Shown here: positions 8,777 to 63,920 of the stretch, piece after piece
Layout of the letters: each line of letters starts with the position of its first letter
Position numbering within the stretch: position 1 is the stretch's first letter
NCBI GenBank assembly: GCA_010279815.1
Contig: QEOQ01000041.1
Location: 251,048-315,047, forward strand
Source of the DNA: Brachionus plicatilis
Lineage: Eukaryota; Rotifera; Eurotatoria; Ploima; Brachionidae
Direction: 5' to 3'
Length of the DNA stretch: 64,000 nucleotides
Program-made: the position numbers and the translations under genes
Notes under the pieces: model-generated
Databases searched by the model: none
Told to the model about the DNA's origin: nothing
What the model saw: only the letters and a program-made list of their open reading frames with translations

Positions 8777-11700
8777 TTAAGAACTATTAATTGGAATTGA
8801 TGAGTTTGATACAACTTTGCCACTTGATTTGGCACATATTGAACACATATATGGACAAGTGGCTCTTACTACTGGATATAACCAGCATTTGTCTTCAAAC
8901 ATGGCTTGTGAACAAAATGGTGAGTCTTCTTTTGGACAAATAACTTAAATTTAAAGCATATTTTACTGCTAATTAGTCAAAAATTAGTTCCTACCATTTT
9001 CACAATATTTTCCACTAAATGTCGAATATGGACATGTACAAGTGCATGTATTTAGATCCATTGTGCCTCCATTCAAGCAATAAACGCCTTTACAGTCACA
9101 TAGACCATTTACACAATTTTTTTCACAGCCTGAACATTTGTTTCCCTCTTGATAAGGCTCATAACGGGAATGATAAGTTTGCCTTAATTTAAAAAAATAT
9201 TTTAGCTCAATTTAAATCTATTTATTTACTACATTTCTCCATAATAGCAGACAAAATAGCGCTCATAAGTTGAGTTAAAACAAAAGCCATAGCCACAACC
9301 AATTCTAGCGGCAGAAGAATAAATCATCTAAAATTTTAGATTAAAAAAATTATTTCAATAGCTAAATAAAGACCTAATTAATCAAATACTTGAGTATAAT
9401 GTCCAGATAAAAGATTTCCATTTGATGAAGAGCTTTTAAAGAGAAAATTTTCCTTTTCTTTAGTCCAAGATGCCAAAACATGAGTCCAATTCTCATAACC
9501 AGCAGCCAGATTTTCTCCAATTACTACTCCTATTTAAAAAAAAATACATAAATTTTAATACATTTTGAAGAGTATTACCATATCCTGGCTGCTGTCTTGT
9601 CAATATTCCTGTATTTTCCACAGAGCATAGCTGGGCTCTTTTCTGAGCCAAATGTTGAAGTCTCACATCCCAGTACATCTTTTAAATTTTAATTTTAAAA
9701 TAAAAATTTCAAAATGATTTCTTGGTTCATTTACTTTTTGCATGTTTGAAGCTGCCGGTTCAACATGACTTCTGACACTGTTGTGCATTTCCAAAATCAG
9801 ATCGATATCTGACGAATTTATGCCACCTGATGAATAATTGGGTGAATTGGCCATACACATTGTATGATTTTTAAAAAGCTTATGAATTCCGCTGCAAATT
9901 TCCGATTCACATAGCCGTCCAGTATACTCAATGCTGCACTCACATTTCCACGATGTTCTTGCCTCGCGTCCAGTCTCTTGATGAACACAGTATCCTCCAT
10001 TTAGACAAGGGTTCGAGTCCTTGCAGTTTATATTAGCGGTGCTCAAGCACAAGGTGTAATCCTGAGTCAAAAAACTTTTAACACAGGTGTAAGAATCGTT
10101 TCCAAGAGGGTTTTTTCTGCAAATATCCGGGTCCTGTTTACAAGGATTGACAAAATCATGTGTTTTTTTTGGCTCCACTTTGGACACTGTTGGGACAGGC
10201 GGCAGTCTGGGGCTAGATGTTACAATCTGGTCAAGTTGAACACGGGAAACTTGTGGCTCTATTTCACACAAATGGCCTGAGTATCCTTGTTTACAGATGC
10301 ATACAAATCCAAATTTGTTGTTTGCATGCGAAAAGCTCATTAGACACGTTCCATTATTTTGGCACTTGATGCCACCATCTTCACACGGATTTTTTATTGG
10401 CAAATTCATTGACGGAACTTTATTAATGGTCACATTTGTCTCAATATTGGAAAGAAGCTTTTGGGCTACTGGTAAATTCTGGGAAATAATGGGCGCCATT
10501 GTGGATATTTCACAGAATCTGCCTGAATAGCCTTGTGGACAAATGCACAGATACGATCTCATTTCTGGATAGTTGGAGCATGTAGAATTATGTTGGCACC
10601 TGTGGTTTAGACAGTAATTTTTTTGGGAACAATCAACACCAGTCCATTCAAGTCGACAGACACAATGCGGTGTACCACCAGCTGACAAAGTACAGTAGCC
10701 TCGGCCAAAATTGTAGAAACAATTAGAGGGACATTGCCAAATGAAGGCCCTCGGAGTAGTGGTCCGATAAAGAGGTGTTATTTTTTTTGTCTGCGGAATT
10801 ATAAACTTGTTGGTAAATTTTTCCATTTTGGGCAAAATTTTGGTAGTCTGTGCGACAATTTTATGAAAGCTTTCACAATACCGGCCACTAAAAGAACTGT
10901 TCGAACACAAACACAAAAAGCTATTGTGCGATACAATGCACTTGGCATTGTTCATGCAAGGATTTGGATTGCATAGGGGTTCAGTGAAGGCAGCTTCGCT
11001 TTTTAGATTAGCTCTAAGGGTTGTCATCTGTTTAACAGTAGAGCTTTGATTGGTGATCGTTGGCTTAGGAGTTGAGGTAACCACTGGTCTTGAGTTGTTA
11101 TTGAAGCTGTAATCATTTTCAATGTTATTTTTGCGCGATATTTCACAGTAAGAACCCATAAAATCACTTGGACACGAGCAGACATATGGAATGGGATACT
11201 TGAAAGCCATGTTGATACATTTTCCATTATTTTTGCATCCCAGTATCCGGCATGAGCTCAAAAATGAATTGATCAATTGTTTGCACTTAGGTGGACTTAG
11301 GGTGATTGAGCAGCTGCACTCAAGACCAAAATCGTTTTCTTTGCACTCAATTAAAGTGTCTGCAGGCACCAGTCTTAGACGCTGAAATTTTCCGCCTTTT
11401 TCTATTTCGTCAATGCGAGTAATCAAGCTGTCCTGGTCATAATTCAGTCTTAGAGATGCAAATTGGTTGGGAAGTTTTTTGTTCGGATTGATTTTGTAAG
11501 TTTGCATTGCTGGCTTGGTCTTGTCCACCGATAGAAAAGAGGTCATGTTAATGGCATTTACTTTGGTGGTTGGTTTATGGGGAAAAAAAGTTGTGTAATG
11601 AGTCTCCATTTTGTTCCTAGGCGACTTGGTTGATGTTTTGCGAATAACATGAGCCTTGGAGCCTTCGACATTGGTCTCTTCGTATTCCAGTCGATGGTTT

Positions 11701-13003
11701 TCTTCTTGAGTTTTGTTCTCGTCACTTTTGACAGTAGACTGGCTGCTAATGTTCAAAATTTCACTCAATTTGTCCATTGACTTGGGCTCATCTTGATAAT
11801 TTAGTTTGGGCAACATTTTTAAAAACTTCAAAGGACGCTTGAACGGGTTAAAAAAGCTGAAGTTTGACTTTGGCGTCGCCTGAAAACTTTCGACCATTTT
11901 TGTGGTGTTAAGCACTGGATTTGGTTGAGTAGTTGGCAAAGAAAAATTACTATCTTTATAAATGTCTGTTCTTAATGAAACTATATTGTCGCCAAAATAT
12001 TCTTTGGTAGTATTGGTCATTTTTTTGCTCAGAGTTTCTTCAATCGAGTCAATGATTGAATTTTTTTGAGCTTGTGCCAAACTTGTGCCCAAGCTGCTCA
12101 TTACCTTGTTGGTAAATTGGTGCACTATTTCATCTTTGTCATGGTACACTTCATCAGTTGACTCGATTTCGTCCTCGATCAAAGTAGACGGAGTCAAGTC
12201 CTCATCATAAGCAGTAGTCTCGAACAAATTATCCAGAGACAATAGCCTTCTTTTTCGGTGCAATCTGGAATAGACTTCTGAGTCATTTTGTTTAACCTGA
12301 GAGCTCAGCTCGTCCAAATGAGAGTCCAATATTGTTTTGCGCACATGCACCTGGTACATCTTGGACCAGTCTTGTTGGTTCAAAGTGCCCATTTTTTTTG
12401 AATTTCCACCAGTATTTGTATTTTTAGTCTGTGAACTGATTTGCTCTGAAGTCTCATTTTGTTTTGTTCCATTGTTTGGCTTGCTTAAAATTTCCACTGT
12501 TATATAACTGCCAGAATTTGGAGCATTCATGTTCAGATCAAAATCTTTGACTTCTTTTTTGGTCAAATTAGACTCCAAAGCTGATTTATTTAGCGATTGA
12601 TTGACTGTTATATTGGCCAATTTGCTTTCAATGTGCTTGGACTCAATGCAGTTTCTGTACCGCATAAATTCAACCAATTCCTCTCCTGATTGAATTCCTT
12701 TGGAAAATTGGGCCTCGAACTCGTAAATACTGTCGCATCTGTGCTTACTTGGATTGTAGATGAGCTTTTGCGGGCAGTGATTATGCACCTGCTTTTGGAA
12801 AGCAGTGCCGATCCACATGCACTCATAGTAAGCCTCACAGTCCATTTCATCCTCAAATAGGCCATCTGTTACACATTTGAAATCCGCACTGGATTTGACT
12901 TTAGATAAAGTTAAAAAAAATAAAATAAAAAGATAAAATTATAACTTTTTTTTATTGCCAAAAAACACATAACCAAAATAAGTAGGGTGGCGCATCTGAT
13001 CAT
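8777..13003 (-). CDS. Secreted multidomain protein: chitin-binding, EGF repeats, CAP domain, ShK-like tail; 7 exons, 1,303 residues
   Basis: Exons: 13003-12946, 12898-9735, 9678-9579, 9529-9390, 9327-9233, 9182-8995, 8943-8777; all phases close. Exon 1 encodes a signal peptide (LLILVMCFLA core). Residues about 28-74 form a peritrophin-like chitin-binding (CBM14) domain; the sixth Cys is displaced or missing. A long Ser/Thr/Asn/Lys-rich linker follows, with an RKRR furin-like site. About six EGF-like modules occupy roughly residues 565-1016 (recurrent GYSGRFCE-type ends). A CAP (SCP/TAPS) domain spans about 1046-1180, with the EMHNSVRSH helix, GENLAAGY and GHYTQMIY, where the usual Trp of the CAP signature is Tyr. 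A further EGF-like and a six-Cys ShK-like module close the protein. It is probably extracellular or matrix-bound. The individual domains are secure; the biological role is unknown. Confidence 0.9.
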
Positions 13004-26846: not shown

Positions 26847-29367
26847 ATGTTTATTAACATTTTAACAATAGCAAGCATTCTAACCACATTAAATGCATAT
26901 TATATCAAAAATGATATAACATGCGTGCCAAACAAAGTAATTCCACATCCGACTGATTGTGGAAGATTTATTAAATGTGGCTATACTGATAATACAAACA
27001 TAGTTCTTAACTGCACATATCCAACTTTATTCAATAGAAGAATCCTTGATTGTGATAGACCTCAGAACGTTTTTTGTCAAACCTATAATTTTGTACCAAG
27101 AGAGGAAAGTATAATTGAAACAATTCAAAAAAAAGAACCAGGTATTTTATAAATAATTAGAAGTAATAAAATCTAAATCAAACAATTTTTAAGAAAAGGT
27201 ATATTGTCCTCGTGGTTGCTTATTTCCTCATCCGACAGGTAAACGTAAAACAAAATAAAAATTATCTAATTAAATTTATTTGAATAAAGACTGTAACAGA
27301 TTTATTCAATGTGGAGAAACATTAAAAGAAAATAAAGAATTTAGGTGTCCAACAAGTATGCTATATAATCATCTAATTACAGGGTGCGATTTAGCCCAAA
27401 ATGTGATTTGCATGACTTACAATTACATATTTATATCTGATGATAAAATTGAAAGCCAAAATCAAATATTTATTGAACAAAAACCACAAGCTGTAAGTAA
27501 TGCTACAAATAATGTAATAACAAATGGGAGTGAATTAATAACTTCAACAGAAATAACAACAGAAGTTATGACTACAAATGAATCAAATATTAATGTTACA
27601 ACAGAACCTTTCACAACTTTGGAATCAATATTGGAAACTTCATCTACTCCAATTGTGACCACTGAAGAATCAACTATGGAATCAATATTGGAAACCTCAT
27701 CTACTCCAATTGTGATCACTGAAGAATCAACTATGGAATCAATGTTGGAAACTTCATCAACTCCAATTGTGACCACTGAAGAATCAACTATGGAATCAAT
27801 ATTGGAAACCTCATCTTCTCCAATTGTGACCACTGAAGAAACAACCATGGAATCAATATTGGAAACTTCATCTTCTCCAATTGTGATCACTGAAGAATCA
27901 ACTATGGAATCAATGTTGGAAACTTCATCAACTCCAATTGTGACCACTGAAGAATCAACTATGGAATCAATATTGGAAACTTCATCTTCTCCAATTGTGA
28001 TCACTGAAGAATCAACTATGGAATCAATGTTGGAAACTTCATCAACTCCAATTGTGACCACTGAAGAATCAACTATGGAATCAATATTGGAAACTTCATC
28101 TTCTCCAATTGTGACCACTGAAGAATCAACTATGGAATCAATGTTGGAAACTTCATCTACTCCAATTGTGACCACTGAAGAATCAACTATGGAATCAATA
28201 TTGGAAACTTCATCTTCTCCAATTGTGACCACTGAAGAATCAACTATGGAATCAATGTTGGAAACTTCATCTACTCCAATTGTGACCACTGAAGAATCAA
28301 CTATGGAATCAATATTGGAAACTTCATCTTCTCCAATTGTGACCACTGAAGAATCAACTATGGAATCAATGTTGGAAACTTCATCTACTCCAATTGTGAC
28401 CACTGAAGAATCAACTATGGAATCAATATTGGAAACTTCATCTTCTCCAATTGTGACCACTGAAGAATCAACTATGGAATCAATGTTGGAAACTTCATCT
28501 ACTCCAATTGTGACCACTGAAGAATCAACTATGGAATCAATATTGGAAACTTCATCTTCTCCAATTGTGACCACTGAAGAATCAACTATGGAATCAATGT
28601 TGGAAACTTCATCTACTCCAATTGTGACCACTGAAGAATCAACTATGGAATCAATATTGGAAACTTCATCTTCTCCAATTGTGACCACTGAAGAATCAAC
28701 TATGGAATCAATGTTGGAAACTTCATCTACTCCAATTGTGACCACTGAAGAATCAACTATGGAATCAATATTGGAAACTTCATCTTCTCCAATTGTGACC
28801 ACTGAAGAATCAACTATGGAATCAATGTTGGAAACTTCATCTACTCCAATTGTGACCACTGAAGAATCAACTATGGAATCAATATTGGAAACTTCATCTT
28901 CTCCAATTGTGACCACTGAAGAATCAACTATGGAATCAATGTTGGAAACTTCATCAACTCCAATTGTGACCACTGAAGAATCAACTATGGAATCAATATT
29001 GGAAACCTCATCTTCTCCAATTGTGATCACTGAAGAAACAACTATGGAATCTCAAAACACAGAAGTTTTGACTACAAATGAATCAAATATTACTGTTTTA
29101 ACAACCGAGTCCATTTCTGATGGGAATTTTAAAGATTTTAATGAGACAAATTTGATTGTTACAAATTCTTTGTCTAATGTTAGCCGAATAGAAATGATTG
29201 ATAGATTTAATAACACGATTGAACTTAATTATATTATCACTAATGAATCAGATTCTAATCTTCTCATTAGTGAGACATCGCCGCCACAAAGTGATTTTAC
29301 TGAATCGATTGTAAAAAAATACTTTTTTAATTATTTTGGGAAATTAAGAAATTTTTTTATTCATTAA
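26847..29367 (+). CDS. Peritrophin-like protein: signal peptide, two chitin-binding domains, mucin-like tandem repeats; 3 exons, 805 residues
   Basis: Probable secreted chitin-binding mucin of a gut lining or other extracellular layer. Exons: 26847-27141, 27194-27238, 27290-29367, joined in phase. A hydrophobic signal peptide (INILTIASILTTLNA) is followed by two CBM14 domains. The first (about residues 26-80) has motif HPTDCGRFIKC; the second is split across exons 2-3 and has FPHPTDCNRFIQC. From about residue 220 to 700 comes a Thr/Ser-rich region of some 25 copies of a 19-residue unit (ESTMESILETSSTPIVTTE), a likely O-glycosylated mucin stalk. A short N-glycosylation-rich tail follows. There is no membrane anchor or GPI signal that I can see. 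Domain order resembles insect and rotifer peritrophins. Exact substrate and tissue are unknown. Confidence 0.87.
27616..29045 (+). repeat. 57-bp coding tandem repeat, about 25 copies, with 114-bp higher-order unit
   Basis: Each copy encodes 19 residues. Two variants (ESILETSSSPIV and ESMLETSSTPIV) alternate through most of the array, so the true period is 114 bp. The middle of the array is nearly perfect, while the 5' copies and the last one carry GTGATC in place of GTGACC and ACA for TCA. The antisense strand is also open throughout (27462-29030), a consequence of the 57-bp period and not evidence of a gene. Confidence 0.95.
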
Positions 29368-40028: not shown

Positions 40029-41527
40029 ATGTTCACTCGTACTTTGTCCAGTAAGCATTTTACAATTAATTCATTTGAGAGTCAACTAACAAAATCTTTT
40101 TTTAGCCAGCTCAACTGATTCATCAGCCACAGGTAGGAAAAATAAAATTTAAAAAAATTTAAAAAATTTCTTTTAATTTACTAACATAATTAGCTTACGT
40201 CATCAGACGTCCATTGGTAAACTGCCGTTCAGGTCCAGTAGTCAGAGCTTCACAAGCTCCAGTAAGAGTAAACCCGTGCTGTCCACCACCACGACCACTT
40301 CCATGCTGTCCACCACCAAGACCATGCTGTCCGCCACCAAGACCATGCTGTCCACCACCACGATCATGTTGCCCACCACCAAAACCGGACTGCGGTTGCC
40401 CACCAAAATCTTCGCGAACTCAAGGTTCAAACAGTGTTCATATTAGAATCACTCCAGCTTCAGCTGCTAAATTGAGCCAAGTTAACTCCAGTTCACAAAA
40501 AGTTTCATCATTACCATCAAGAACCATTAAACAAACTTCGACTAAATTGACAGGTCCAGCTTCATCGGCTCCAAAATCAACTGCAAAATCCGCCGCACGA
40601 TCTGCTGCTCCAACTTCATCTGGTCCATCTTTGACTGTTCGTGAACAACAAATTTTGGCTCAAAAACAAGCTTTGGAACAAGCACAACAAGCTCTGCAAC
40701 AACAGGCTCAACAAGTTGCCACTCAAGCTCAAGCTGTTCAACAACAAGCTTCTCAATTGCAAGCATATCATCAGCAATTGGTGGCTGCACAGCAACAGCA
40801 ACAACCAGCAGCACAACAACAGCAACAACCAGCAGCACAACAACAGCAGCCACAAGCTCAATATGATCCACAACAATACGCTGCATACCAACAGCAATTG
40901 GCTGCCCAACAACAACAGCAACCAGCACCACAACAGCAACCACAATACACTGCCAGCCAAGCTCAACAATTTGCTGCTCAACAACAACAGCCACAACAGC
41001 AACCACAATACACTGCCAGCCAAGCTCAACAATTTGCTGCACAACAGCAACAACAGCAACAGCAACCACAATACACTGCCAGCCAAGCTCAGCAATACGC
41101 TGCTCAACAACAACAACAACAACCACAACAGCAACCACAATACGCTGCACCACAACCTCAGCAACCACAACAACCACAACAGCCCCAATTCCCAGGATTC
41201 GATAACTTTGCTCAATCTGCATCGCAAGCAATTCAACAAGCAGTGCCACAAGGCCAAAACAGTTTTAACCCAGCACAAGCTCCACAGCAACCACAATTTA
41301 ATGGTTCAAATTTCCAAACCGGAGATCAAAGCTTTGATAAACTGGCCCAAGAAGCTATCCAAAAGTACCAATTTGAACAACAAATTAAGGAGCAAATGAA
41401 CCAACAAATGAGCCAAGTTCAAGGAAATGTACCACAACAGGCTCCACAACAAGCTCCACAACAAGCTCCACAACAATTCCAAGCTCCTCAGCAATTTCAG
41501 CAAGCTCCACAACAATTTCAACAATAA
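40029..41527 (+). CDS. Low-complexity protein with CCPPPR repeats and Gln-rich tail, 3 exons, 460 residues
   Basis: I do not recognise a named family. Exons: 40029-40050, 40106-40132, 40194-41527; both introns are phase 1 and about 55-60 bp. There is no signal peptide or membrane segment, so it is probably intracellular. After a Ser/Thr-rich start come five CCPPPR/K units (residues about 44-90) ending PKPDCGCPP. A basic Ser/Ala-rich part follows, then a helical Gln/Ala stretch (REQQILAQKQALEQAQQAL), then four imperfect repeats of QPQYTASQAQQFAAQ separated by poly-Q, and an APQQAPQQ tail. Cys-Pro arrays and Q-rich repeats suggest a cross-linkable structural protein. It is a candidate paralogue of the gene at 44690-46190, which shares size and intron pattern. 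A TATA box lies upstream. Confidence 0.8.
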
Positions 41528-43160
41528 GTTAACATTAGTTAATTTTTTTAAAATATGATTATCGGCAAAAAATGTCTTAAGAATTCAAAAAACATAGTAT
41601 TTTAACAAATAAATAGTTTTTAAGTTAAAAGAACTTTTTTTTATTTAAATAGAATTTATATTTTTTTAAATTTAACAATTACATCAATGGTAAATTCAAA
41701 ATTAAATAAATAAAATTCTTAAAATAAATTTTAGTGAATAATTTAAATAAAAAGCAAGATAGGACATAATAAGCAAAAAAATTTGAATATGAATTTAAAC
41801 TAATTAGAATCGGTAGATTGAAAAACGCCTAAAAAATTGCATTTTTATACGCAAAATAACGTTTTCTTTTGAATAAATAATTTTTTAATCCAACATTTGA
41901 TTCAAAGAAATTAAAATAACAAAACAAGTATTGACAAGTATTCTTTAAATATTTTATTCCAAAATTCATTAGATTGAAATTTCTTTAGGATGCAAAAAAA
42001 ATACGATAGTTATATTACATAAAATTCAACCATCTTATTCCAACTACTAAAAAATCAAAATATTTTAATTTATTTAAATATGATTTCCAAGTGAATTTTA
42101 ATTTTTTTATTCTTAATTTTTAAATAAATTGGAATGTATTAAATCTGTTATTAAATTTAAGAAAAATTATTTAAAATTTTTTTTTATATGAAAATTTTTC
42201 AAAATTTTAAAAAAGCTGCATCCGTTCGGGATTCTATTTTTTATGGATTATTAACAAAATGGACTAAATATCTTCCTTTTATTTTTAAATTGAATATTAT
42301 AAAGAATTCAATTTTGGTAACATTTTTCCTTTATGATTTTAAAATTTAAAAAAATTTTAAAATTTTTCAAATCTATTTCTCATGTCTCTTTTTTTGTAAA
42401 AAGGAGTTAAAAATAATTGATTTTTCCTTGAATTCCAGATCTTATTTGAATTAAAAGGTTTTGAGTTTTATTATTTTTATTTAAAATCAATTTTTTAAAT
42501 TATGATTTAACAATAATTGAAAAAATTAATTTCTGAATCCTTTAAGTATGAAATCGAATTTTGAAAATAAAAAATTTAGGAAAGAAAAAACATAGAGCCA
42601 GACTTTTCTGTAATTGGCAACAACAAAAAAACAGGAATCGGAATCTATTGCTAACGATTAAAATATGGAAAGGGTAATAGAAAAATAAATTTAAATTTTT
42701 TTTTTTTTTAAATGAATATTTAAATGTACAATAACAAAAATATAAAATCAAATTTTCTTTTTATTTTAATAATCTTTTGAAAGCAATTAAAAATGAATCA
42801 AAATTTGCTTCTTCTCTAAATAAATAAACACCAAAGTCCGTACCTGAAGGTGTATTGAAAATTTATTTCTAGTTGCAACACCACTGGATTTTGATAAGAA
42901 GTGTATTCATTTTTTTTGTATTTTAGATGCTAAGAAAAGTAAATTTTCCAGTCTTAAAAATAATTTTAAGTGAAAGCGATAAATTAAAATTTTGTGAAGA
43001 TTATTTAAACAAATGACTTAAAAGGCCTTTGATTTAGAAAATAATTAAAAAAGATCAGCTAAGATATATGATATAAGAAGTTACATTTCTTCAGAGGTGA
43101 ATAATACCTGTTTATGGAAAACTTAAATAGTATTGACTGAGAAAGAAGTTTTGAAAACAA
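41528..43160. other. Intergenic between the Q-rich gene and a LINE relic
   Basis: AATAAA for the upstream gene lies at about 41608. Otherwise this is A/T-rich spacer without a recognisable gene. The 5' end of the LINE relic may start somewhat before 43160 but is not recognisable. Confidence 0.4.
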
Positions 43161-44412
43161 AGATGTTAATTATTGCTATGAGTTTTTCTTAAATGTTTAA
43201 ACAATCCATGCTCAAGTTTAATACCAAAGCGTGACCATTCCAAAAAAATAGATAAAACTATCATTTTGTTAACAGCACCAACCAAGAAGCTCATCAGGTA
43301 TTAAAAATACTTATGGTACAAACACCTATCGTCGAACAAAAATCAGAATGTACTTGATGAACTTAAGAAAATTAAAAAACTTATTAAATAAATGATTAGG
43401 AGCGGTCTAAAAAAAATAGAGTGGTATACCATAAGGATCCGTTGTGGGACCAATACTTTTTATCATATATATAAACGACTTAACTGATAAAGTTAGCAGT
43501 TTTTATGAATTATTTGCAGATGATACTAAATTAGAGGCGATGCTTGATCAAGTTGAAAAGTCTTATGTACTCAGAAACGACCTAATCGAAATTTACACAT
43601 GAACCAAAGAATGGCTTATTTGTCTAAATGAAGATAAGTGTAAGGTTTTACACATCGGAAACAACAATCCTAATTGCGAATATTACATAGAAAATAATCA
43701 AATCACAAAAAATAAATAAGAGAAAGACTTAGGTATCACAATATCTGAAGACTTTAAGTGAACAGCTCACATAAACTCGGCAATCAAAAAGAACATAATG
43801 TTCTTGGAATGATTAAAAGAACATTTAAATTTCACAATAAGGATTCAGTTTCAAGACTCTACAAAGCTTTTGTCAGACCTAATCTTGAGTATAAAGTCAC
43901 AATTTTGAAACCTTACTTGAAGAAAGATATAAACGCCATCGAAGCCGTTCAAAGACGAGTAGCAAGGCTTGTGCCGGAAACAGAAGAATATCCTATGAAA
44001 AAAGATTACAAGAACTAAATTTGACAACACTTGAAATTAGAAGACTTAGAGGTGATTTAATACAAATGTTTAAATTAGTTAAGGGCTCTGATTAAATTAA
44101 CTGGTTTAATAAAATTGTGTTTAAAAATGAACAAATGTTTCAATCGAAGTATCAACTAAGGTCACACGAATTCCAGATAGAAAGACAACTAGTCAAAAAT
44201 TGTGATCAGCGTCACAATTTTTTTAAAAACACAGTATCAAGCATTTGGAACAATCTACCGAAAAAAGTAGTTCTATCAAATGACACAAATGAATTTAAAA
44301 ATAAATCTGACAGACTAAATTTAGGAAGCTATTATAATGGAACTTAAAACTCCATTTCGTGTAGTCAGTCACATCATAGCTTTTTATTTTTTATTATTAT
44401 TATTATTATATT
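43160..44412 (+). mobile_element. Decayed non-LTR retrotransposon (reverse-transcriptase C-terminal half)
   Basis: Translation across stops gives the polymerase motifs GSVVGPILFIIYINDL and ELFADDTKLEA (the catalytic F/YADD). Then come EDKCKVLHIGN, EKDLGI, the SRLYKAFVRPNLEY block, INAIEAVQRRVARLV, and a C-terminal stretch to about 44347 ending LNLGSYYNG. The 3' end is an (ATT)n tail (44390-44412). In-frame stops include TAA at an expected Gln (before GSVVGP) and TGA at two expected Trp positions (before TKEW and before TAHI), consistent with simple transition decay. It lies between the two Q-rich genes. Confidence 0.85.
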
Positions 44413-44689
44413 ATATAAAAGATAAACGGTCAATAAAATTAAGGATTTGTTTTAATTCTTTATTTTTTGTTAAAAGAAAAAAAGGAAATGATTAAAAATA
44501 AAAATTATCAGATTAAAGGATCAGTTTATAAAAATTGAAATCCTAATTTAATAAAAATTATTTTCCAAAAAAATTTCTTAAAAGCATAAATAATTTTGTT
44601 TTCAATTTAATGAGTTCAAATTTCAAAAAAAAATCCAAATTTTAAATTTAGAAAAATTTTTCACTATTGATTAGTTTTCAAACATTTGT

Positions 44690-46190
44690 TTATTGATAGT
44701 AATTTTGCTGAGGTAATTGAAAATTCATCGATGATTCCATTTGGGCCACATTCGGAGCCTGCTGATACTGATTGGAAAAATTTGGCTGATTTAACTGGTT
44801 CATATCCTGGCTATAATTCTGATTTGGAGCATATGGCTGAGCTATTGTTTTTTGTTGACCGTAGAATTGATCAGGAACTTGAGGAGCTTGAGGAGCTTGA
44901 GGAACTTGAGGAAATGTGACTTGATTTGTGCCGAACTGCTGACCAAATGATTGTTGAGTAGTAAATTGATTTGGAACTTGCTGTATTTCCGGTTGGACAA
45001 ATTTTTGAGTCAAAGACTGCTGAGCTGGAAACTGCTGATTATTGTTTTGATTCTGAGCATAGTTTGGATAAAATTGCTGGCCTTGATATGCTCCTGGGGT
45101 TGCTTGCAATCCACCACCATTATTCCAAACTTTATTCGTTTGATCTTGAACTGCATTAGCCCAATATGATTGACTTGGTAAATTTAATTTTCTCTCAAAT
45201 TCTGTTTGAGACTCTGGTTCATAGACTGTATTGGATACTTCGCGAACCGTTCTATTTCTGGTCTCTGGTGCAATCTGGGCAATAGTCCTAGCGCTTCTCT
45301 GCTGTCCAACTCCGCTTCCATTTTGATAATTGCTGGGCGCTTGTGGTCGAGCAGTGGCTATAGGAACGGATCTTTGCGATGTAGCCTTTGTTACGTGCTC
45401 TTGAGGTTCACTGGCTTGAGATCTGTACACTGATGCTTCAGAGCTCAGTCTGGATGATTCTGAGCTCAAAGTCCTAATTGGTACTGATGAATTTCTGCGT
45501 CTGCATCCTAATAGTGTTATTGACTTCAACAACTCATTTCTACGCTGTTCCAAATCACGGATTTCGCTTCGTCTCATTTCCAATTCTTTCAACTCAAGTC
45601 TTCTCAGCTGAATTCTTAAAAGTTCTTCATTACAAGATTTTCCATTTGGAAAAATATCTTCCTCATCGTCGTTTGCCTCCTCTTGGTCACCTTGTTCATA
45701 TTCTTGATCTTCCTCGTTATATTCACCCTCTTCTTGTTGTTCCTGATACTCTTGTTGTTCTTGGTCTTGTTGTTCATCGTACTCTTGCTGCTCTTGTTGC
45801 TGCTGTTCATACTGTAATTGCTGTTGCTGCTCCAAGGTCTGTTGCTCTTGTAACTGTTGTTCTTCTAAGCTTTGCACTTGGTGCTGACTTTTTTGAGATT
45901 TGCCGGTAGAAGATTTCAAAGTAGATTTAGCTCTACTTAACTTGGAGCTGTGGTGACTTTCAGTTTCGGCTTTAATTTTTTCAACAGGTCTGACAACATT
46001 TACATTAATGTAAGTTTGTCCATCAACTATTTTTTTTTGAAAATTTTATTAAAAAAATTAAATTTTTTAATCTACTCACCTTTATTGTACTCGTAGTTAA
46101 CTAATTTAAAAAATGATCAAAAATTTATTAAAAAAAAATAAAAAATGATGCTTAAAAATGTTTACCTGATTCTACGTATTCTCTGGGCAT
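44690..46190 (-). CDS. Gln/Glu-rich low-complexity protein with coiled coil, 3 exons, 460 residues
   Basis: No named family is recognised. Exons: 46190-46166, 46100-46080, 46026-44690; both introns phase 1, about 53-65 bp. The protein starts MPREYVES and has no signal peptide. After TYINVNVVRP comes a Ser/Lys segment, then a long Gln/Glu run, an acidic patch (EEANDDEEDIF), a charged helix likely to form a coiled coil (EELLRIQLRRLELKELEMRR), a Ser/Arg region, and a C-terminal Gln/Asn/Pro/Tyr/Phe-rich part that looks prion-like and disordered. The gene has the same coding length and the same tiny-exon, phase-1 architecture as the gene at 40029-41527, and the two face each other. I infer ancient paralogy and a structural, probably cytoplasmic, role. 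Confidence 0.78.
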
Positions 46191-50753: not shown

Positions 50754-51596
50754 TTAAAAAAGACTGCCAAAATTGTTGCTTCCAAAGTTGAAGTTGCCTC
50801 CGAAAGATTGTGGCAATTGATTGTTATTGCTAAATGAATTCAAATCAAAATTTCCAAATGACTGGTTGTTTCCAAAGTTGGCTTCTGAAAATTGAGCAGA
50901 AAAGTCAGCTTGAGCTGGTGCAGCTGATAGAGCTGGAGCTTTATTTAGCAATTTTTTTAAGTGACATGGACAGTCAGGTGGTGGTACGGCGCCAGTAGAA
51001 GGAGCGGCCGGAGCAGCAGCTGAAAATGATAGAGCTGGCTGTTGAGCATTAAAATTAGAACCGAATTGTGAACCAGATTGGTCATTGAATTTTTTGAATA
51101 AACCCGAAGAAGTTGGCAAATTAAATTGTCTTTCTAAAGAAGAAGAGGTTGGTAGTTGAAAATTGCCTGGTTGAGCAGGAGCAACTGATGCAGCAGGAGC
51201 AGCTGGGCTAGCATCACTTTGTTGCTGAGCATTCAATAAAGATGAATCAAATTTTCCAGCAACATGGTCATCAAAACTTTTAATTAATGTTGAAGCAGTT
51301 GGAAAATTAAATTGTTTTTGTAAAGTGGATGCAGTTGGCAATTGAGCTTTAGAAGAAGTTGGTAATTGAGCTTTGCTGGTCAAAGCTGGTGCAGCAGAAG
51401 CCGCTGGGGCAGCAAGAGCAGCATTCAATGAAAGAGCTGGTTGTTGGGCATTCAAGGAAGAACCAAATTTTCCATTTACATGGTCATCGAAACTTTTTAT
51501 TAATGTTGAAGCAGTTGGAAAATTCAATTGTTTTTGTAAAGTGGATGCAGTTGGCAATTGAGCCTTAGAAGCAGTTGGAGGTTGGATAGCTGACAT
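50754..51596 (-). CDS. Ala/Ser/Phe-rich repeat protein with PPPDCPC motif, 280 residues
   Basis: No named family is recognised. A single exon starts at the ATG 51596 with no signal peptide. Three diverging repeats of about 70-75 residues each contain PTASTLQKQ-x-NFPTAST, LIKSFDDHV, GKF and LNAQQ; they begin near residues 12, 82 and 148. The third copy is the most diverged (PTSSSLERQFNLPTSSGLF, KKFNDQ). After the repeats comes VPPPDCPCHLKKLLNK (about 216-231), then a Phe/Asn/Gly/Ser-rich tail ending FGSNNFGSLF. The PP-x-DCPC motif and aromatic/Asn tail are shared with the gene at 54189-54644 on the same strand. A TATA-like ATATTTAAAG lies about 60 bp upstream. The role is unknown; a structural, intracellular protein is my inference. 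Confidence 0.72.
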   Translation of the reverse strand: MSAIQPPTASKAQLPTASTLQKQLNFPTASTLIKSFDDHVNGKFGSSLNAQQPALSLNAALAAPAASAAPALTSKAQLPTSSKAQLPTASTLQKQFNFPTASTLIKSFDDHVAGKFDSSLLNAQQQSDASPAAPAASVAPAQPGNFQLPTSSSLERQFNLPTSSGLFKKFNDQSGSQFGSNFNAQQPALSFSAAAPAAPSTGAVPPPDCPCHLKKLLNKAPALSAAPAQADFSAQFSEANFGNNQSFGNFDLNSFSNNNQLPQSFGGNFNFGSNNFGSLF

Positions 51597-52835: not shown

Positions 52836-53973
52836 ATGAAAGAATTAGCGACCTTAAGTGAGATTTATCTTTATCCAGTTAAGTCGTTGTCTGGCATCAA
52901 ACTAGAGAAAGCATTGACCACAAAATACGGTCTGGCTCATCCGGAAAATAGCTTGGTCGTGGATAGGTGAGAAAATTATTATCAAAATGTCAAAAATGAT
53001 TTGAAATTATTTGCTATGAATTTAACAGAAAATGGATGATAGTAGATTCTAATGGTTCATTTCGTACTCAAAGACAAATACCAAAGATGGCTCTAATAAA
53101 GCCTAGTGTAGAAGGTGATTTCTTGGTATTTAATGCTCCTCAACAAAATACTCTAAAGATTCCCATTAAGAATCCGAACAAGAATACAATTAACTGCAGG
53201 TTTTATCTTTTAATTATTTTCTGAATAAGACGAGAAAATTTGAGATTTTTTTTAAGACTTTGGAAATGCAGAATAGATGGTTGTGCTTATGGAGGCGAAG
53301 TGAGTTCATGGCTTAGCAGTTTTCTTGAGGTTGATGGTTTAGATTTGATTATTTTTGATGAAAAATCAACTCCGGTAAAATGCCAAGATTTAGAAGAGAG
53401 CACTGAAACAAGAGAAAATGATGTTGTAATATATCAGGATTTTAATCCTTTTATGCTGATTGGCGAGAATTCTCTTGATGAATTGAACAAAAGATTAGAA
53501 AATAAGGTGACAATGAAGCGGTTTAGACCGAATTTTATCTCCAAGAATAATTCAGCCTTTTCAGAGGTTATATTTAAGATATTTTTTCTAATTAAGAAAA
53601 TTACGATGTTATTCAAATTTAGGATGATTGGGAAAAATTTAAAATTGGGGAATCAGAGTTTTGTCGCATTAAACATTGCACTAGGTAATTAGATAAATAT
53701 TTTGATTTTTTTACAATTTTATTTTTAGGTGTTTGCTTACAACCGTCGATCAAAATAAAGGAGAAAGAGATAAAAATCAAGAACCTCTTAAAACTTTAAG
53801 AGAGTAATTTATCTTTTAGAATTTTTTATCAAATCTTAAATTGTTTTGTTGATTAAAAAAGATTTAGATTGAATAAAGAAGTCTATGGAACAAGTCCCAT
53901 GTTTGGAATCAATATGGGAATCGATAATCCTGGAAAAATGATTAAAGTTGGAGATAAAATCACTCGAGAATAA
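52836..53973 (+). CDS. MTARC: mARC-like molybdenum cofactor (MOSC domain) amidoxime reductase, 6 exons, 286 residues
   Basis: mARC enzymes reduce N-hydroxylated compounds, taking electrons from cytochrome b5 reductase through cytochrome b5. Exons: 52836-52966, 53029-53199, 53257-53566, 53623-53684, 53729-53803, 53862-53973; phases close to a TAA stop. The MOSC N-terminal beta-barrel shows SEIYLYPVKSLSGIKLEKA and VDRKWMIVDSNG-x-F-x-TQRQ. The MOSC domain has FNPFMLIGENSLDELNKRL and the conserved RFRPNF. RCLLTTVDQNKG follows, in which Cys226 matches the Mo-binding Cys of human mARC1. The C-terminal motif is YGTSPMFGINM-(x)-NPGKMIKVGD. Compared with the human enzyme (about 335 residues) the N-terminal targeting/membrane anchor is missing. 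An upstream exon may encode it, or the protein is cytosolic. Confidence 0.93.
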
Positions 53974-54188
53974 TTTAAATTCTTTTTTAAATTATGAATG
54001 ATTTTGAAAAGAATTGCCATTTATAATAAAATAATTATTGGGGTTTATCTTTTGAAAGATCATTCCTTCGATTAAACATAGTTTAATTAAAAAATTTATT
54101 ACAAAAAGAAATTTTTAAACCGTTCTTAAATAATAAAAAAATATTTTATTTTGTTGAATTTGAAAAGATTGAGGATATTTTTTTGAAT

Positions 54189-54644
54189 TTAAAAAAATCC
54201 ATGGCCAAAAGAAGAACCAAATTGGTTTTCCAGAGAAAATGATGGAAATGCATTGAACGATGAATTTGATGAACTTGAAAAATCATATGAATTCAAGTTT
54301 TGGCCAAAATTTAATGGAAATCCAAAAAAGCCTGTCTGGAATGAAAATTCGTTCAAATTTCCCAAGTTGAATTCTTCAATTTTTTCTTCATTTTTCACGA
54401 CGCTTTCTACAGGCTTATTTAATCGACATGGGCAATCTAGTGGTGGTTCAACAGCATCATTTCCTTCTGGCTTCTCTTCGTTGGATTTTGAAGGCTGTGC
54501 TTCTGGTTTGATTGAAGAAGTCGGATTATTCGAAAACAAATCTTTGTACGATCTCATGTAAGTAGAAAGTGACATTGGTTCTTTGATAGAATGCTCTTCT
54601 TGCACCTGAGCAGCTAATGTAGAAAAAGTCTTTTGGTCAGTCAT
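54189..54644 (-). CDS. Small PP-x-DCPC motif protein, Ser/Phe/Asn-rich tail, 151 residues
   Basis: No named family is recognised. A single exon starts at ATG 54644 with no signal peptide. The N-terminal half is polar and acidic (LAAQVQEEHSIKEPMSL; STYMRSYKDLF). It is followed by VEPPLDCPCRLNKPVESV (about 76-93) and a Phe/Asn/Ser-rich tail with repeated FG/FS pairs, ending FGSSFGHGFF. The DCPC-x-L-x-K core and the aromatic tail match the gene at 50754-51596, so the two are probably related. TATATAAATAG lies 50-60 bp upstream on the minus strand. Function unknown. Confidence 0.68.
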   Translation of the reverse strand: MTDQKTFSTLAAQVQEEHSIKEPMSLSTYMRSYKDLFSNNPTSSIKPEAQPSKSNEEKPEGNDAVEPPLDCPCRLNKPVESVVKNEEKIEEFNLGNLNEFSFQTGFFGFPLNFGQNLNSYDFSSSSNSSFNAFPSFSLENQFGSSFGHGFF

Positions 54645-54693
54645 TATTTTTTTGATTTATCCTGAATATTTTGTTTCAACAAAGGCATCTGAG

Positions 54694-54704
54694 CTATTTA
54701 TATA
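54694..54704 (-). promoter_or_regulatory. TATA box of the small DCPC gene
   Basis: TATATAAATAG on the minus strand lies about 55 bp before the ATG at 54644, so the 5' UTR should be only about 25 nt. Confidence 0.6.
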
Positions 54705-55131
54705 TGGTAAGATGCATCATTTATTCAAATGTTTACATTGATTGGAATCTTTTTATTTTTTTTCAAGAAATAAAAATTCTTACATTTTAATGTATACATT
54801 CTTAGATCTAAATAATGGTGGTTTATAAACAATTCTAACAGATGATCGAAAGAAATATTTTAGAAGAATCAATCAATTGTTTGTTGCTTGAAAATGGTGT
54901 GTATAAATGGCTGATAAATCTTTTTTAATATAAATTTTTGTTGAAATACCATAGTTTTATTAAGCAAAATGCAATTTTTTTTTATTAAATTTGGTTAATA
55001 GAGGTTGCTTTATTCTAACGAGTTGAGTCACAGTTTTCAAAAAAATTGATTTATTTGAGAAATTGTATAAACAAGCAAGGCTAACAATAAATGTATCTTT
55101 TAGGTAAATTTTTTTGTTTTGAGCAAAGTTA

Positions 55132-62407: not shown

Positions 62408-62585
62408 GGCTAAAATTTGAAGCCACGGTATCAACAATTCGGAGACTAGACGAGACCTTGCCCAAAAAAAATTATATGTCCATAAGCTCAGCTAAAACTC
62501 AGCTTCTACTGCACAGAACAGCGCCAGAACCCAAGAACAAGGACAGCGAGCTCAATTAGCATTTACCCACTCGATTGAATCCAGA

Positions 62586-63920
62586 ATGGCCGAAGCAATG
62601 ATCCCAGTCCTGAAGGACACCAAAGACCCCCACTACAGATACAAGATGCCCAAGCTCACCGCCAAAATAGAGGGCAGCGGCAACGGCATCAAGACCGTGC
62701 TCACCAACATAAACGCGGTGGCCAAGTCGCTGTACCGGCCGGCCTCGTACCCCACCAAGTACTTTGGGTGCGAGCTGGGCGCCCAAGTGAAAATGACCAA
62801 CGACATTTTTGTGGTGAACGGGTCGCACGACCCCGACAAGCTGCTCAGTCTGCTCTATGACTTTATCAAAAAGTTTGTGCTGTGCGCCAAGTGCAAAAAC
62901 CCGGAGACATCGCTGACGATTGTGAAGGGCGCCATCAACCAAAAGTGCATTGCGTGCGGCCACGCGGCCCTCATACCCAAAACGCTGCACAAGCTCACCA
63001 CCTACATCCTCAGCCATCCGCCCAACGAGACCACTTTGTCCGTGAGCAACTCGCAGGCCAAAAAGAGCAAGAGCGAGAAGAAGGCGAAGAGCAAAAGTGA
63101 GAGTCCCAAGAGCGGCTCGAAGAGCCCGAGCGCCGACGCCACCGAGACCAAGGGGGAGCAGGCGGACGAGCACGAGTTCAGTGACTTTGAGGAGGACGAG
63201 CTGTCGCCCGAGGCGGTCGCCCAGCGTCTCAGAGAAGGCCTCGAGAACGGCCTGGTCATTGACGCCAAGGCCAGCGCCAATTTGTTCTACGAAATAGTCA
63301 AGGAGAAGAGAGAGAAAAATGCGCTGCTGGACGTGGCCGTGCAGAAAGAGCTGCTGAACGAGGCCAAAAAGCTGGACATCAAGGACAAGGCTGTGCTCGT
63401 GCTGTCCGAGCTGCTATTCAGCCAGGACATGTTCAACGAGATCGAAAAGTATCGGCTGCTGTTTTTGAGATTTTGTGCCGACAATGTCAAGGCCCAGAAG
63501 TACTTGCTGGGCGGCTTCGAGATCCTGATTGGTGACGTGTACAAAGAGGAGCTGTTCGCCTCGGCGATGAAAATTTTGAAGCAGTTCTACGACCAGGACG
63601 TGATTGGCGAAGAGGCCATACTGGAGTGGGCGGCCAAGGACTCAAAGAAGTATGTGTGCAAGGAAATGAACAGAAAGATACGCGAAAAAGTGGCCAGGTT
63701 TGTGGAATGGCTGAAGGAGGCCGATGAAGAGGAGGACTCTGATGATGAGCGGAAGAGCGATGCCAAGACGGACCAAGAGGAAGAGGACGACTTGTTGGAG
63801 TTTAGTCATCGTGTGTCTGGCATTCAGATTGAGGAGGTCAAGCCTGTATCACAGACTAATGGAAATTCTGTGCACAAGGACGAGAGTGAAGGCGAAGACA
63901 TTGATATTGATGATATTTAA
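62586..63920 (+). CDS. EIF5: Eukaryotic translation initiation factor 5 (eIF5), intronless coding region, 444 residues
   Basis: GTPase-activating protein for eIF2-GTP in the 43S pre-initiation complex. The N-terminal GAP domain (about 1-150) contains the YRYKMPKL motif with the catalytic Arg (Arg18 here), NGIKTVLTNI and PTKYFGCELG. A zinc ribbon with Cys100, Cys103, Cys121 and Cys124 follows. A Lys/Ser/Glu-rich linker (about 155-215) leads to the C-terminal HEAT/W2 domain (about 230-400), which ends in acidic-aromatic boxes (AILEWA-type; FVEWLKEADEEED). Length is close to the human protein (431). The codons are markedly richer in G and C than those of any other gene in the window, and GC-ending codons dominate, suggesting translational selection for high expression. 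The coding region has no intron, though a 5' UTR intron is possible. Confidence 0.97.
   Translation: MAEAMIPVLKDTKDPHYRYKMPKLTAKIEGSGNGIKTVLTNINAVAKSLYRPASYPTKYFGCELGAQVKMTNDIFVVNGSHDPDKLLSLLYDFIKKFVLCAKCKNPETSLTIVKGAINQKCIACGHAALIPKTLHKLTTYILSHPPNETTLSVSNSQAKKSKSEKKAKSKSESPKSGSKSPSADATETKGEQADEHEFSDFEEDELSPEAVAQRLREGLENGLVIDAKASANLFYEIVKEKREKNALLDVAVQKELLNEAKKLDIKDKAVLVLSELLFSQDMFNEIEKYRLLFLRFCADNVKAQKYLLGGFEILIGDVYKEELFASAMKILKQFYDQDVIGEEAILEWAAKDSKKYVCKEMNRKIREKVARFVEWLKEADEEEDSDDERKSDAKTDQEEEDDLLEFSHRVSGIQIEEVKPVSQTNGNSVHKDESEGEDIDIDDI

What the first reader, a model, noticed from the sequence alone, without database searches (positions are those of the whole stretch)
40029..46190. Facing pair of Q-rich genes with identical coding length and identical tiny-exon, phase-1 architecture
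The genes at 40029-41527 (+) and 46190-44690 (-) each encode 460 residues from three exons: 22+27+1334 nt and 25+21+1337 nt. All introns are phase 1 and about 53-65 bp. Their N-termini share only a weak pattern (AYVIRRPLV against TYINVNVVRPVE), and their repeats differ (CCPPPR plus QYTASQAQQ against a Q/E run plus coiled coil). This looks like an old inverted duplication whose repeat regions diverged quickly. Neither has a signal peptide, which is unusual for Cys-Pro/Q-rich structural proteins. An intracellular skeletal material, such as the intracytoplasmic lamina of the rotifer integument, is an attractive but unproven idea.
Basis: partly seen in the sequence, partly recalled or inferred. 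Interest (0 to 1): 0.75.

Follow-up and report, generated by a model that had tools for sequence, protein, structure and literature searches.

The report
Rotifer cluster of glutamine-rich structural genes
Two neighbouring glutamine-rich rotifer genes really do start with the same odd pair of tiny exons, but they look like members of a wider local gene cluster rather than a mirror-image pair, and they may encode an internal skin-stiffening material, which is not yet shown.

Summary
The exon coordinates given for both genes are right. Gene B (46190-44690) is real and conserved: 99% identical to a Brachionus plicatilis protein, 51% and 38% to two further relatives; its tiny-exon N-terminus is kept in B. 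calyciflorus (26 of 29 residues). The equal length is chance: the annotated B. plicatilis copy of B has 457 residues. A and B show no sequence homology beyond composition, so an inverted duplication is not shown. The architecture beats chance, and a third gene, E, just outside the window, fits it: 34+18+728 nt, both introns phase 1. Genes C and D lie between B and E; B and C share a predicted helix-loop-helix module; D has a 94.5% inverted copy D'. Best reading: a roughly 31-kb cluster of fast-diverging, signal-peptide-free, low-complexity structural-type genes, resembling in kind (not by descent) the vertebrate epidermal differentiation complex. An integument role is inference only. About 110 bp of gene A match a dispersed repeat.

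The parts
40029..40050 (+). Gene A exon 1 (22 nt, ends in phase 1)
   Evidence: ATG and GTAAGC donor; in the model that ties for the best splice score among 48; ab initio
40106..40132 (+). Gene A exon 2 (27 nt, ends in phase 1)
   Evidence: TTTTAG acceptor, GTAGGA donor; ab initio
40194..41527 (+). Gene A exon 3: short N-terminal piece, Cys-Pro repeats (CCPPPR), Ser/Ala/Lys/Thr linker, Q-rich repeats; first Met of the open frame only at codon 403, so upstream exons are needed. A second acceptor choice (100-bp intron) scores the same
   Evidence: no Pfam family; no relative found in the protein database
40522..40632 (+). Part of gene A exon 3 (about residues 126-163) that matches a dispersed repeat
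   Evidence: 16 further places listed at 79-89% identity over 47-111 bp, 13 of them starting at the same base
46166..46190 (-). Gene B exon 1 (25 nt, ends in phase 1)
   Evidence: N-terminus matches P0001 and P0003
46080..46100 (-). Gene B exon 2 (21 nt, ends in phase 1); with the start of exon 3 it encodes a predicted beta-hairpin
44690..46026 (-). Gene B exon 3: Q/E-rich helix, conserved coiled coil, RPxAPSNYQN...RTIAQ motif, helix-loop-helix module (loop LNLPS here, LNLPT in a relative), disordered Q/N-rich tail
50754..51596 (-). Gene C, single coding exon, 280 residues, three repeats LPTxSxLxxQxNxPTxSxLxKxF, then PPPDCPC and an F/N/S-rich tail
54189..54644 (-). Gene D, single coding exon, 151 residues, PPLDCPC motif and F/N/S-rich tail; an inverted copy D' lies outside the window (open frame C22:319479-319943, +)

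Best explanation
A and B are two members of a local cluster (about 31.6 kb, from window 40.0 kb to 7.6 kb beyond its right end; order A+, B-, C-, D-, then eIF5+, D'+, E+, with a MOSC-domain frame + between C and D) of fast-diverging, signal-peptide-free, low-complexity proteins in a Brachionus plicatilis-type rotifer. Shown: A, B and E fit the same unusual 5' gene structure (two coding exons of 18-34 nt, phase-1 introns of 53-65 bp, one long exon; supported by relatives for B, ab initio for A and E); B and C share a predicted helix-loop-helix module; D is duplicated. Inferred: they descend by local duplication from one or a few structural-protein genes, the repeat regions having turned over quickly while the 5' end or a short module persisted. 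Proposed mechanism (inferred): in the cytoplasm the N-terminal hairpin and coiled coil (B) or the helical modules (C) make the proteins assemble with each other or with keratin-type intermediate filaments, and the disordered Q-rich and Cys-Pro stretches (A, E) bind and cross-link, for instance by disulfides, into a resistant layer. The likeliest site is the epidermal syncytium, whose internal lamina forms the lorica (recalled); that site is a guess.
For: Architecture above chance and found in three genes of one stretch. B conserved over Brachionus, with conserved blocks at the tiny-exon N-terminus, coiled coil and LPT region. A B. calyciflorus LPT-region query finds two places in the 102.9-Mb genome at E <= 10: B (1e-4) and C (0.93), about 6 kb apart. 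B-C local alignment score reached by 0 of 300 and 1 of 300 window shuffles. AlphaFold gives the same short helix-loop-longer helix in B (291-295/301-317, 10-residue pLDDT means 59-75) and in the three C repeats (23-29/35-51, 95-102/107-121, 157-163/169-184; means mostly 68-81 in the first two, 44-58 in the third). C-D share PPxDCPCxL (E 0.009). No signal-peptide-like N-termini. TATAWA motifs upstream of A, B, D, D' and E. Intermediate-filament genes exist in the genome: 6 of 7 matches over cut-off, one on the same contig; 0 of 14 prokaryote controls over it. A rotifer epidermis has an intracytoplasmic lamina (PMC13403294, passages), and the lorica is described as acid-resistant scleroprotein (PMC10246822, passages).
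Against: No sequence homology of A or E to B or to each other beyond composition. C-D is weak by shuffles (20 of 300 and 7 of 300). C has no TATAWA within 200 bp; in AT-rich DNA such motifs mean little. No expression, protein or localisation data. A has no relative in the protein database although B. plicatilis proteins are in it (one search scored only the 7988 candidates sharing most words). E's tiny exons are an ab initio model; its second exon could be 15 instead of 18 nt. C's hit to the B. calyciflorus query is itself not significant (E 0.93), and I chose that query after suspecting C. Transglutaminase search uninformative.
Confidence: 0.4

Rival explanations
1. A and B are an old inverted duplication of one gene, with repeats that diverged later.
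For: Facing orientation, same three-exon phase-1 structure, both Q-rich.
Against: Equal length is accidental (457 in P0001). N-termini no better than shuffles. No DNA similarity of the two loci at E 0.01. E shares the structure, so A-B is not a special pair. A relative of B's LPT region was found in C, not in A.
Confidence: 0.12
2. A, B and E are unrelated genes that carry similar tiny exons by chance or because such 5' ends are common in rotifer genes.
For: No sequence homology between A, B and E. The genome-wide frequency of tiny coding exons was not measured; the published B. plicatilis summary gives only mean exon 175 bp and mean intron 194 bp (PMC6555955, passages).
Against: None of the other 40 open frames tested in 114 kb admits a phase-1/1 tiny-exon model; three in one short stretch.
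Confidence: 0.25
3. The proteins are intracellular but not skeletal: Q-rich, prion-like RNA-binding, nuclear or germline/egg proteins.
For: Q/N-rich disordered tails and a coiled coil fit many such proteins; no Pfam family over cut-off for A, B, C, D or E.
Against: Cys-Pro repeats in A, Cys motifs in C and D and six Cys in E suit cross-linked material; no RNA- or DNA-binding family over the Pfam cut-off in A to E.
Confidence: 0.25
4. Gene A is not a normal gene but a repeat-derived open frame.
For: 111 bp inside it match a dispersed repeat at 16 other listed places; no database relative.
Against: The repeat covers only about 37 of 460 codons; residues about 17-115 find only themselves in the genome (the Q-rich part was not searched); TATAWA upstream and AATAAA downstream; open frame of 445 codons.
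Confidence: 0.05

Closest known systems
BpHYR1_044934, hypothetical protein, Brachionus plicatilis (P0001), with P0003 of B. calyciflorus
   Same: Gene B is the same gene as P0001 (99% identity, no difference but a gap); same N-terminus encoded by the tiny exons
   Different: B has 460 residues against 457; the records seen give no function
Vertebrate epidermal differentiation complex: SEDC genes such as involucrin, SPRR and loricrin
   Same: Linked genes, strongly biased composition, low complexity, rapid divergence so that position, exon structure and composition rather than sequence mark candidates, intracellular structural products (PMC9365767, PMC4245816, passages)
   Different: There exon 1 is non-coding and the protein lies in one exon; here A, B and E have two coding tiny exons; no shared sequence tested or claimed; skin expression unknown
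Keratin-associated proteins (recalled)
   Same: Cys-Pro-rich repeats in A; intermediate-filament genes in the same genome
   Different: No Pfam match for A; long Q-rich part

Membership tests
Brachionus BpHYR1_044934 family (gene B) | Full-length sequence identity and conserved blocks | tested here: met
   B: 99%, 51% and 38% identity to P0001, P0002 and P0003
Brachionus BpHYR1_044934 family (gene A) | Any of the conserved blocks of B | tested here: not met
   Profile comparison 10 columns, probability 2.9%; N-terminus no better than shuffles
Cluster family A/B/E | Two coding exons of at most 45 nt, both introns phase 1, then one long exon | tested here: met
   for A and E ab initio only
Cluster family A/B/E | Sequence homology among the members | tested here: not met
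   A-B, A-E and B-E no better than composition
Epidermal differentiation complex (SEDC type) | One non-coding exon plus a single coding exon | tested here: not met
   A, B and E have three coding exons; for C and D a 5' non-coding exon is untested
Epidermal differentiation complex (SEDC type) | Low complexity, composition biased to residues such as P, Q, K, C, G or S | tested here: met
   A 30% Q, 14% A, 13% P; B 19% Q, 10% E; E 16% Q, 13% S; C 16% A, 14% S; D 15% S, 11% F
Epidermal differentiation complex (SEDC type) | Flanking S100A genes, epidermal expression | not tested
   No expression data; S100 domains were not searched for
Intermediate filament proteins | PF00038 rod domain | tested here: not met
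   No such match in A, B, C, D or E; filament genes lie elsewhere
Transglutaminase cross-linked envelope | Transglutaminase in the genome | tested here: inconclusive
   PF00868 found neither here nor in the 14 controls

The most novel reading that the evidence does not exclude
Rotifers evolved, independently of vertebrates, a linked cluster of low-complexity, rapidly diverging genes whose intracellular products build the internal skin skeleton (the lorica lamina); its members are recognisable by a shared two-tiny-exon 5' end and by short helical modules rather than by sequence.
Probability: 0.2. Interest if true: 0.75.

Novelty: new variant of a known kind. Interest (0 to 1): 0.5.

Why it matters
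The rotifer lorica is described as a chemically resistant scleroprotein (PMC10246822, passages). I came across no sequenced lorica protein in my searches, but I saw only listings, in part, and passages of two papers, and the library lacks most subscription journals, so this does not show that none is known. A cluster with a recognisable gene structure gives a short candidate list (A to E) that can be tested by lorica proteomics or in situ hybridisation, and would allow comparison of how an internal skin skeleton evolved in rotifers and in vertebrates.

Tried and rejected
Length equality as evidence: rejected, since P0001 has 457 residues. Homology of A and B by BLASTP, Smith-Waterman with window shuffles, hhalign, N-terminal shuffles and blastn of the loci: all negative. 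Homology of A and E or B and E: negative by sequence; blastn of the loci gave only three short hits (A-D 28 bp, A-E 18 bp, C-D 33 bp; E 0.004-0.008), not followed. Pfam: nothing over cut-off for A, B, C, D or E. Solved structures: one sub-threshold match for the B profile (harmonin, E 0.39), not followed. Gene A in the protein database, whole and residues 1-130: no match. Genome-wide paralogues: B only itself at E <= 0.001; a 201-residue piece of A gave 18 other places at E <= 10, 17 of them the repeat piece and one (E 4.75) not followed; A residues about 17-115 only themselves; C only itself; E itself plus one place at E 0.71, not followed; D gives D' plus one E 0.09 frame with stops, not followed. 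Transglutaminase N domain: uninformative. Rfam over the window: nothing at the gathering score. Papers holding RAGATH-11: none found. Synteny in other Brachionus: not testable, the genome has no relatives here.
Full report
WHAT IS THERE. The window is C22:251048-315047 of a 102.9-Mb genome in 173 contigs. Gene B is 99% identical to a named Brachionus plicatilis protein, so this is a B. plicatilis-type rotifer. The exon coordinates of the finding are right to the base: A 22+27+1334 nt, B 25+21+1337 nt, introns 55, 61, 65 and 53 bp, all phase 1, 460 residues each. The genes face each other with 3,162 bp between their coding ends.

GENE B IS REAL AND CONSERVED. Relatives are P0001 (B. plicatilis, 457 aa, differing by a three-residue gap), P0002 (unnamed source, 51%) and P0003 (B. 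calyciflorus, 38%). The stretch encoded by the two tiny exons and the start of exon 3 is among the best-kept parts: 26 of 29 residues are identical in B. calyciflorus. P0002 begins at residue 26 and says nothing on this. Other kept blocks are a coiled coil, a RPxAPSNYQN...RTIAQ motif and a LPxxSxW region. AlphaFold on P0001 with the two other relatives gives mean pLDDT 51.8: a beta-hairpin at 8-16/19-27 (10-residue means 62-81), a Q-rich helix 61-123, a coiled-coil helix 147-194 (means mostly 83-97), short helices 291-295 and 301-317 (59-75), and mostly disorder elsewhere.

THE EQUAL LENGTH IS AN ACCIDENT. B has 460 residues here and 457 in the annotated B. plicatilis protein, and the B. calyciflorus protein has 441.

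A AND B ARE NOT VISIBLY HOMOLOGOUS. BLASTP, Smith-Waterman against composition-preserving window shuffles (z 1.1; 44 of 300 and 51 of 300 shuffles reach the score), profile comparison (probability 2.9%), N-terminal shuffles (1705 of 2000 global and 1627 of 2000 local score as high) and blastn of the loci all fail to link them.

THE ARCHITECTURE IS MORE THAN CHANCE AND FITS A THIRD GENE. Beyond the window's right end, gene E (L025 6697-7596 = C22:321744-322643, +) has exons of 34, 18 and 728 nt, introns of 60 and 60 bp, both phase 1, 259 residues, with Cys-Pro and Q-rich parts. Its second exon could also be 15 nt. None of the long open frames of A, B and E has a methionine near its start (offsets 402, 156 and 177), so upstream exons are needed. 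Of 43 open frames of at least 100 aa in 114 kb, spurious antisense ones included, only A, B and E admit any phase-1/1 model with two exons of 6-45 nt and introns of 40-90 bp; for B it ties with a phase-1/2 model. Upstream shuffles reach the score with phase 1/1 in 0, 0 and 1 of 200. With looser settings A has a second acceptor of equal score, and B allows a higher-scoring phase-1/1 model with a 110-bp second intron, but the N-termini of P0001 and P0003 match the 53-bp version. How common such structures are genome-wide was not measured.

A WIDER CLUSTER. Between B and E lie C (51596-50754, -) and D (54644-54189, -), both single coding exons. None of A to E has a signal-peptide-like N-terminus by the hydropathy proxy (highest 10-residue mean in the first 40 residues 0.52-0.94 for A to D, 1.39 for E). 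D has an inverted copy D' (C22:319479-319943, +; 96% protein identity); the duplicated stretch is 1,055 bp at 94.5%. An eIF5 gene lies between D and D', and an open frame with a MOSC-domain match lies between C and D. C repeats the pattern LPTxSxLxxQxNxPTxSxLxKxF three times; B and its relatives carry a related region once. A B. calyciflorus query for this region finds two places in the genome at E <= 10: B (1e-4) and C (0.93), about 6 kb apart. I chose that query after suspecting C, and only two first-look candidates were scored. Shuffle tests support B-C (0 of 300 and 1 of 300). AlphaFold on C alone (mean pLDDT 49.4) gives a short helix-loop-longer helix for each repeat, the layout seen in B; confidence is fair in the first two (means mostly 68-81) and low in the third (44-58). 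C and D share PPxDCPCxL (E 0.009; shuffles 20 of 300 and 7 of 300, weak).

A REPEAT INSIDE GENE A. Window 40522-40632 (about residues 126-163 of A) matches 16 further listed places at 79-89% identity over 47-111 bp, 13 of which begin at the same base (counts are lower bounds). The loci fetched share longer stretches with each other. Three of four repeat loci scanned carry a RAGATH-11 RNA. Whether A took up a piece of a mobile element or the element took up a piece of A was not resolved.

HOW IT MAY WORK (inference). Cytoplasmic proteins with short assembly modules (hairpin, coiled coil, helical modules) and long disordered Q-rich or Cys-Pro tails could form a cross-linked layer, alone or with intermediate filaments, which this genome has (6 of 7 matches over cut-off; none of 14 prokaryote controls over it). 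An electron-dense intracytoplasmic lamina is reported in the syncytial integument of the rotifer Asplanchnopus (PMC13403294, passages), and the rotifer lorica is described as acid-resistant scleroprotein, citing among others Bender and Kleinow 1988 (PMC10246822, passages; the 1988 paper itself not seen). No result here places any of these proteins in the skin.

COMPARISON. The nearest parallel in kind is the vertebrate epidermal differentiation complex, whose candidate members are sought by gene position, exon structure and biased composition (PMC9365767, PMC4245816, passages). The exon structure differs, and kinship is not claimed.

VERDICT.

Noticed in passing
window 40522-40632 and loci L003-L019: Part of gene A matches a dispersed repeat family; 3 of 4 repeat loci scanned (L004, L006, L012, not L003) carry Rfam RAGATH-11 RNA.
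   Followed up: partly
window about 43440-44370: Decayed reverse-transcriptase-like fragment (FADDTKL motif recognised from memory, many stops and frame changes) between genes A and B.
   Followed up: no
window 53813-54860 and C22:319276-320326: Inverted duplication of gene D, 1,055 bp at 94.5%, with the eIF5 gene between the copies.
   Followed up: partly
window 62496-63920: eIF5 gene in a 2-kb stretch of 47% GC, where 25 of the 32 two-kb stretches of the window have 21-30% GC.
   Followed up: no
window 27274-29367: Chitin-binding (CBM_14) open frame with a near-identical Ser/Thr/Glu tandem array of about 57-bp units.
   Followed up: no
window 9663-12938 (-): Open frame of 1,091 codons with a chitin-binding peritrophin-A domain and EGF-like domains.
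   Followed up: no
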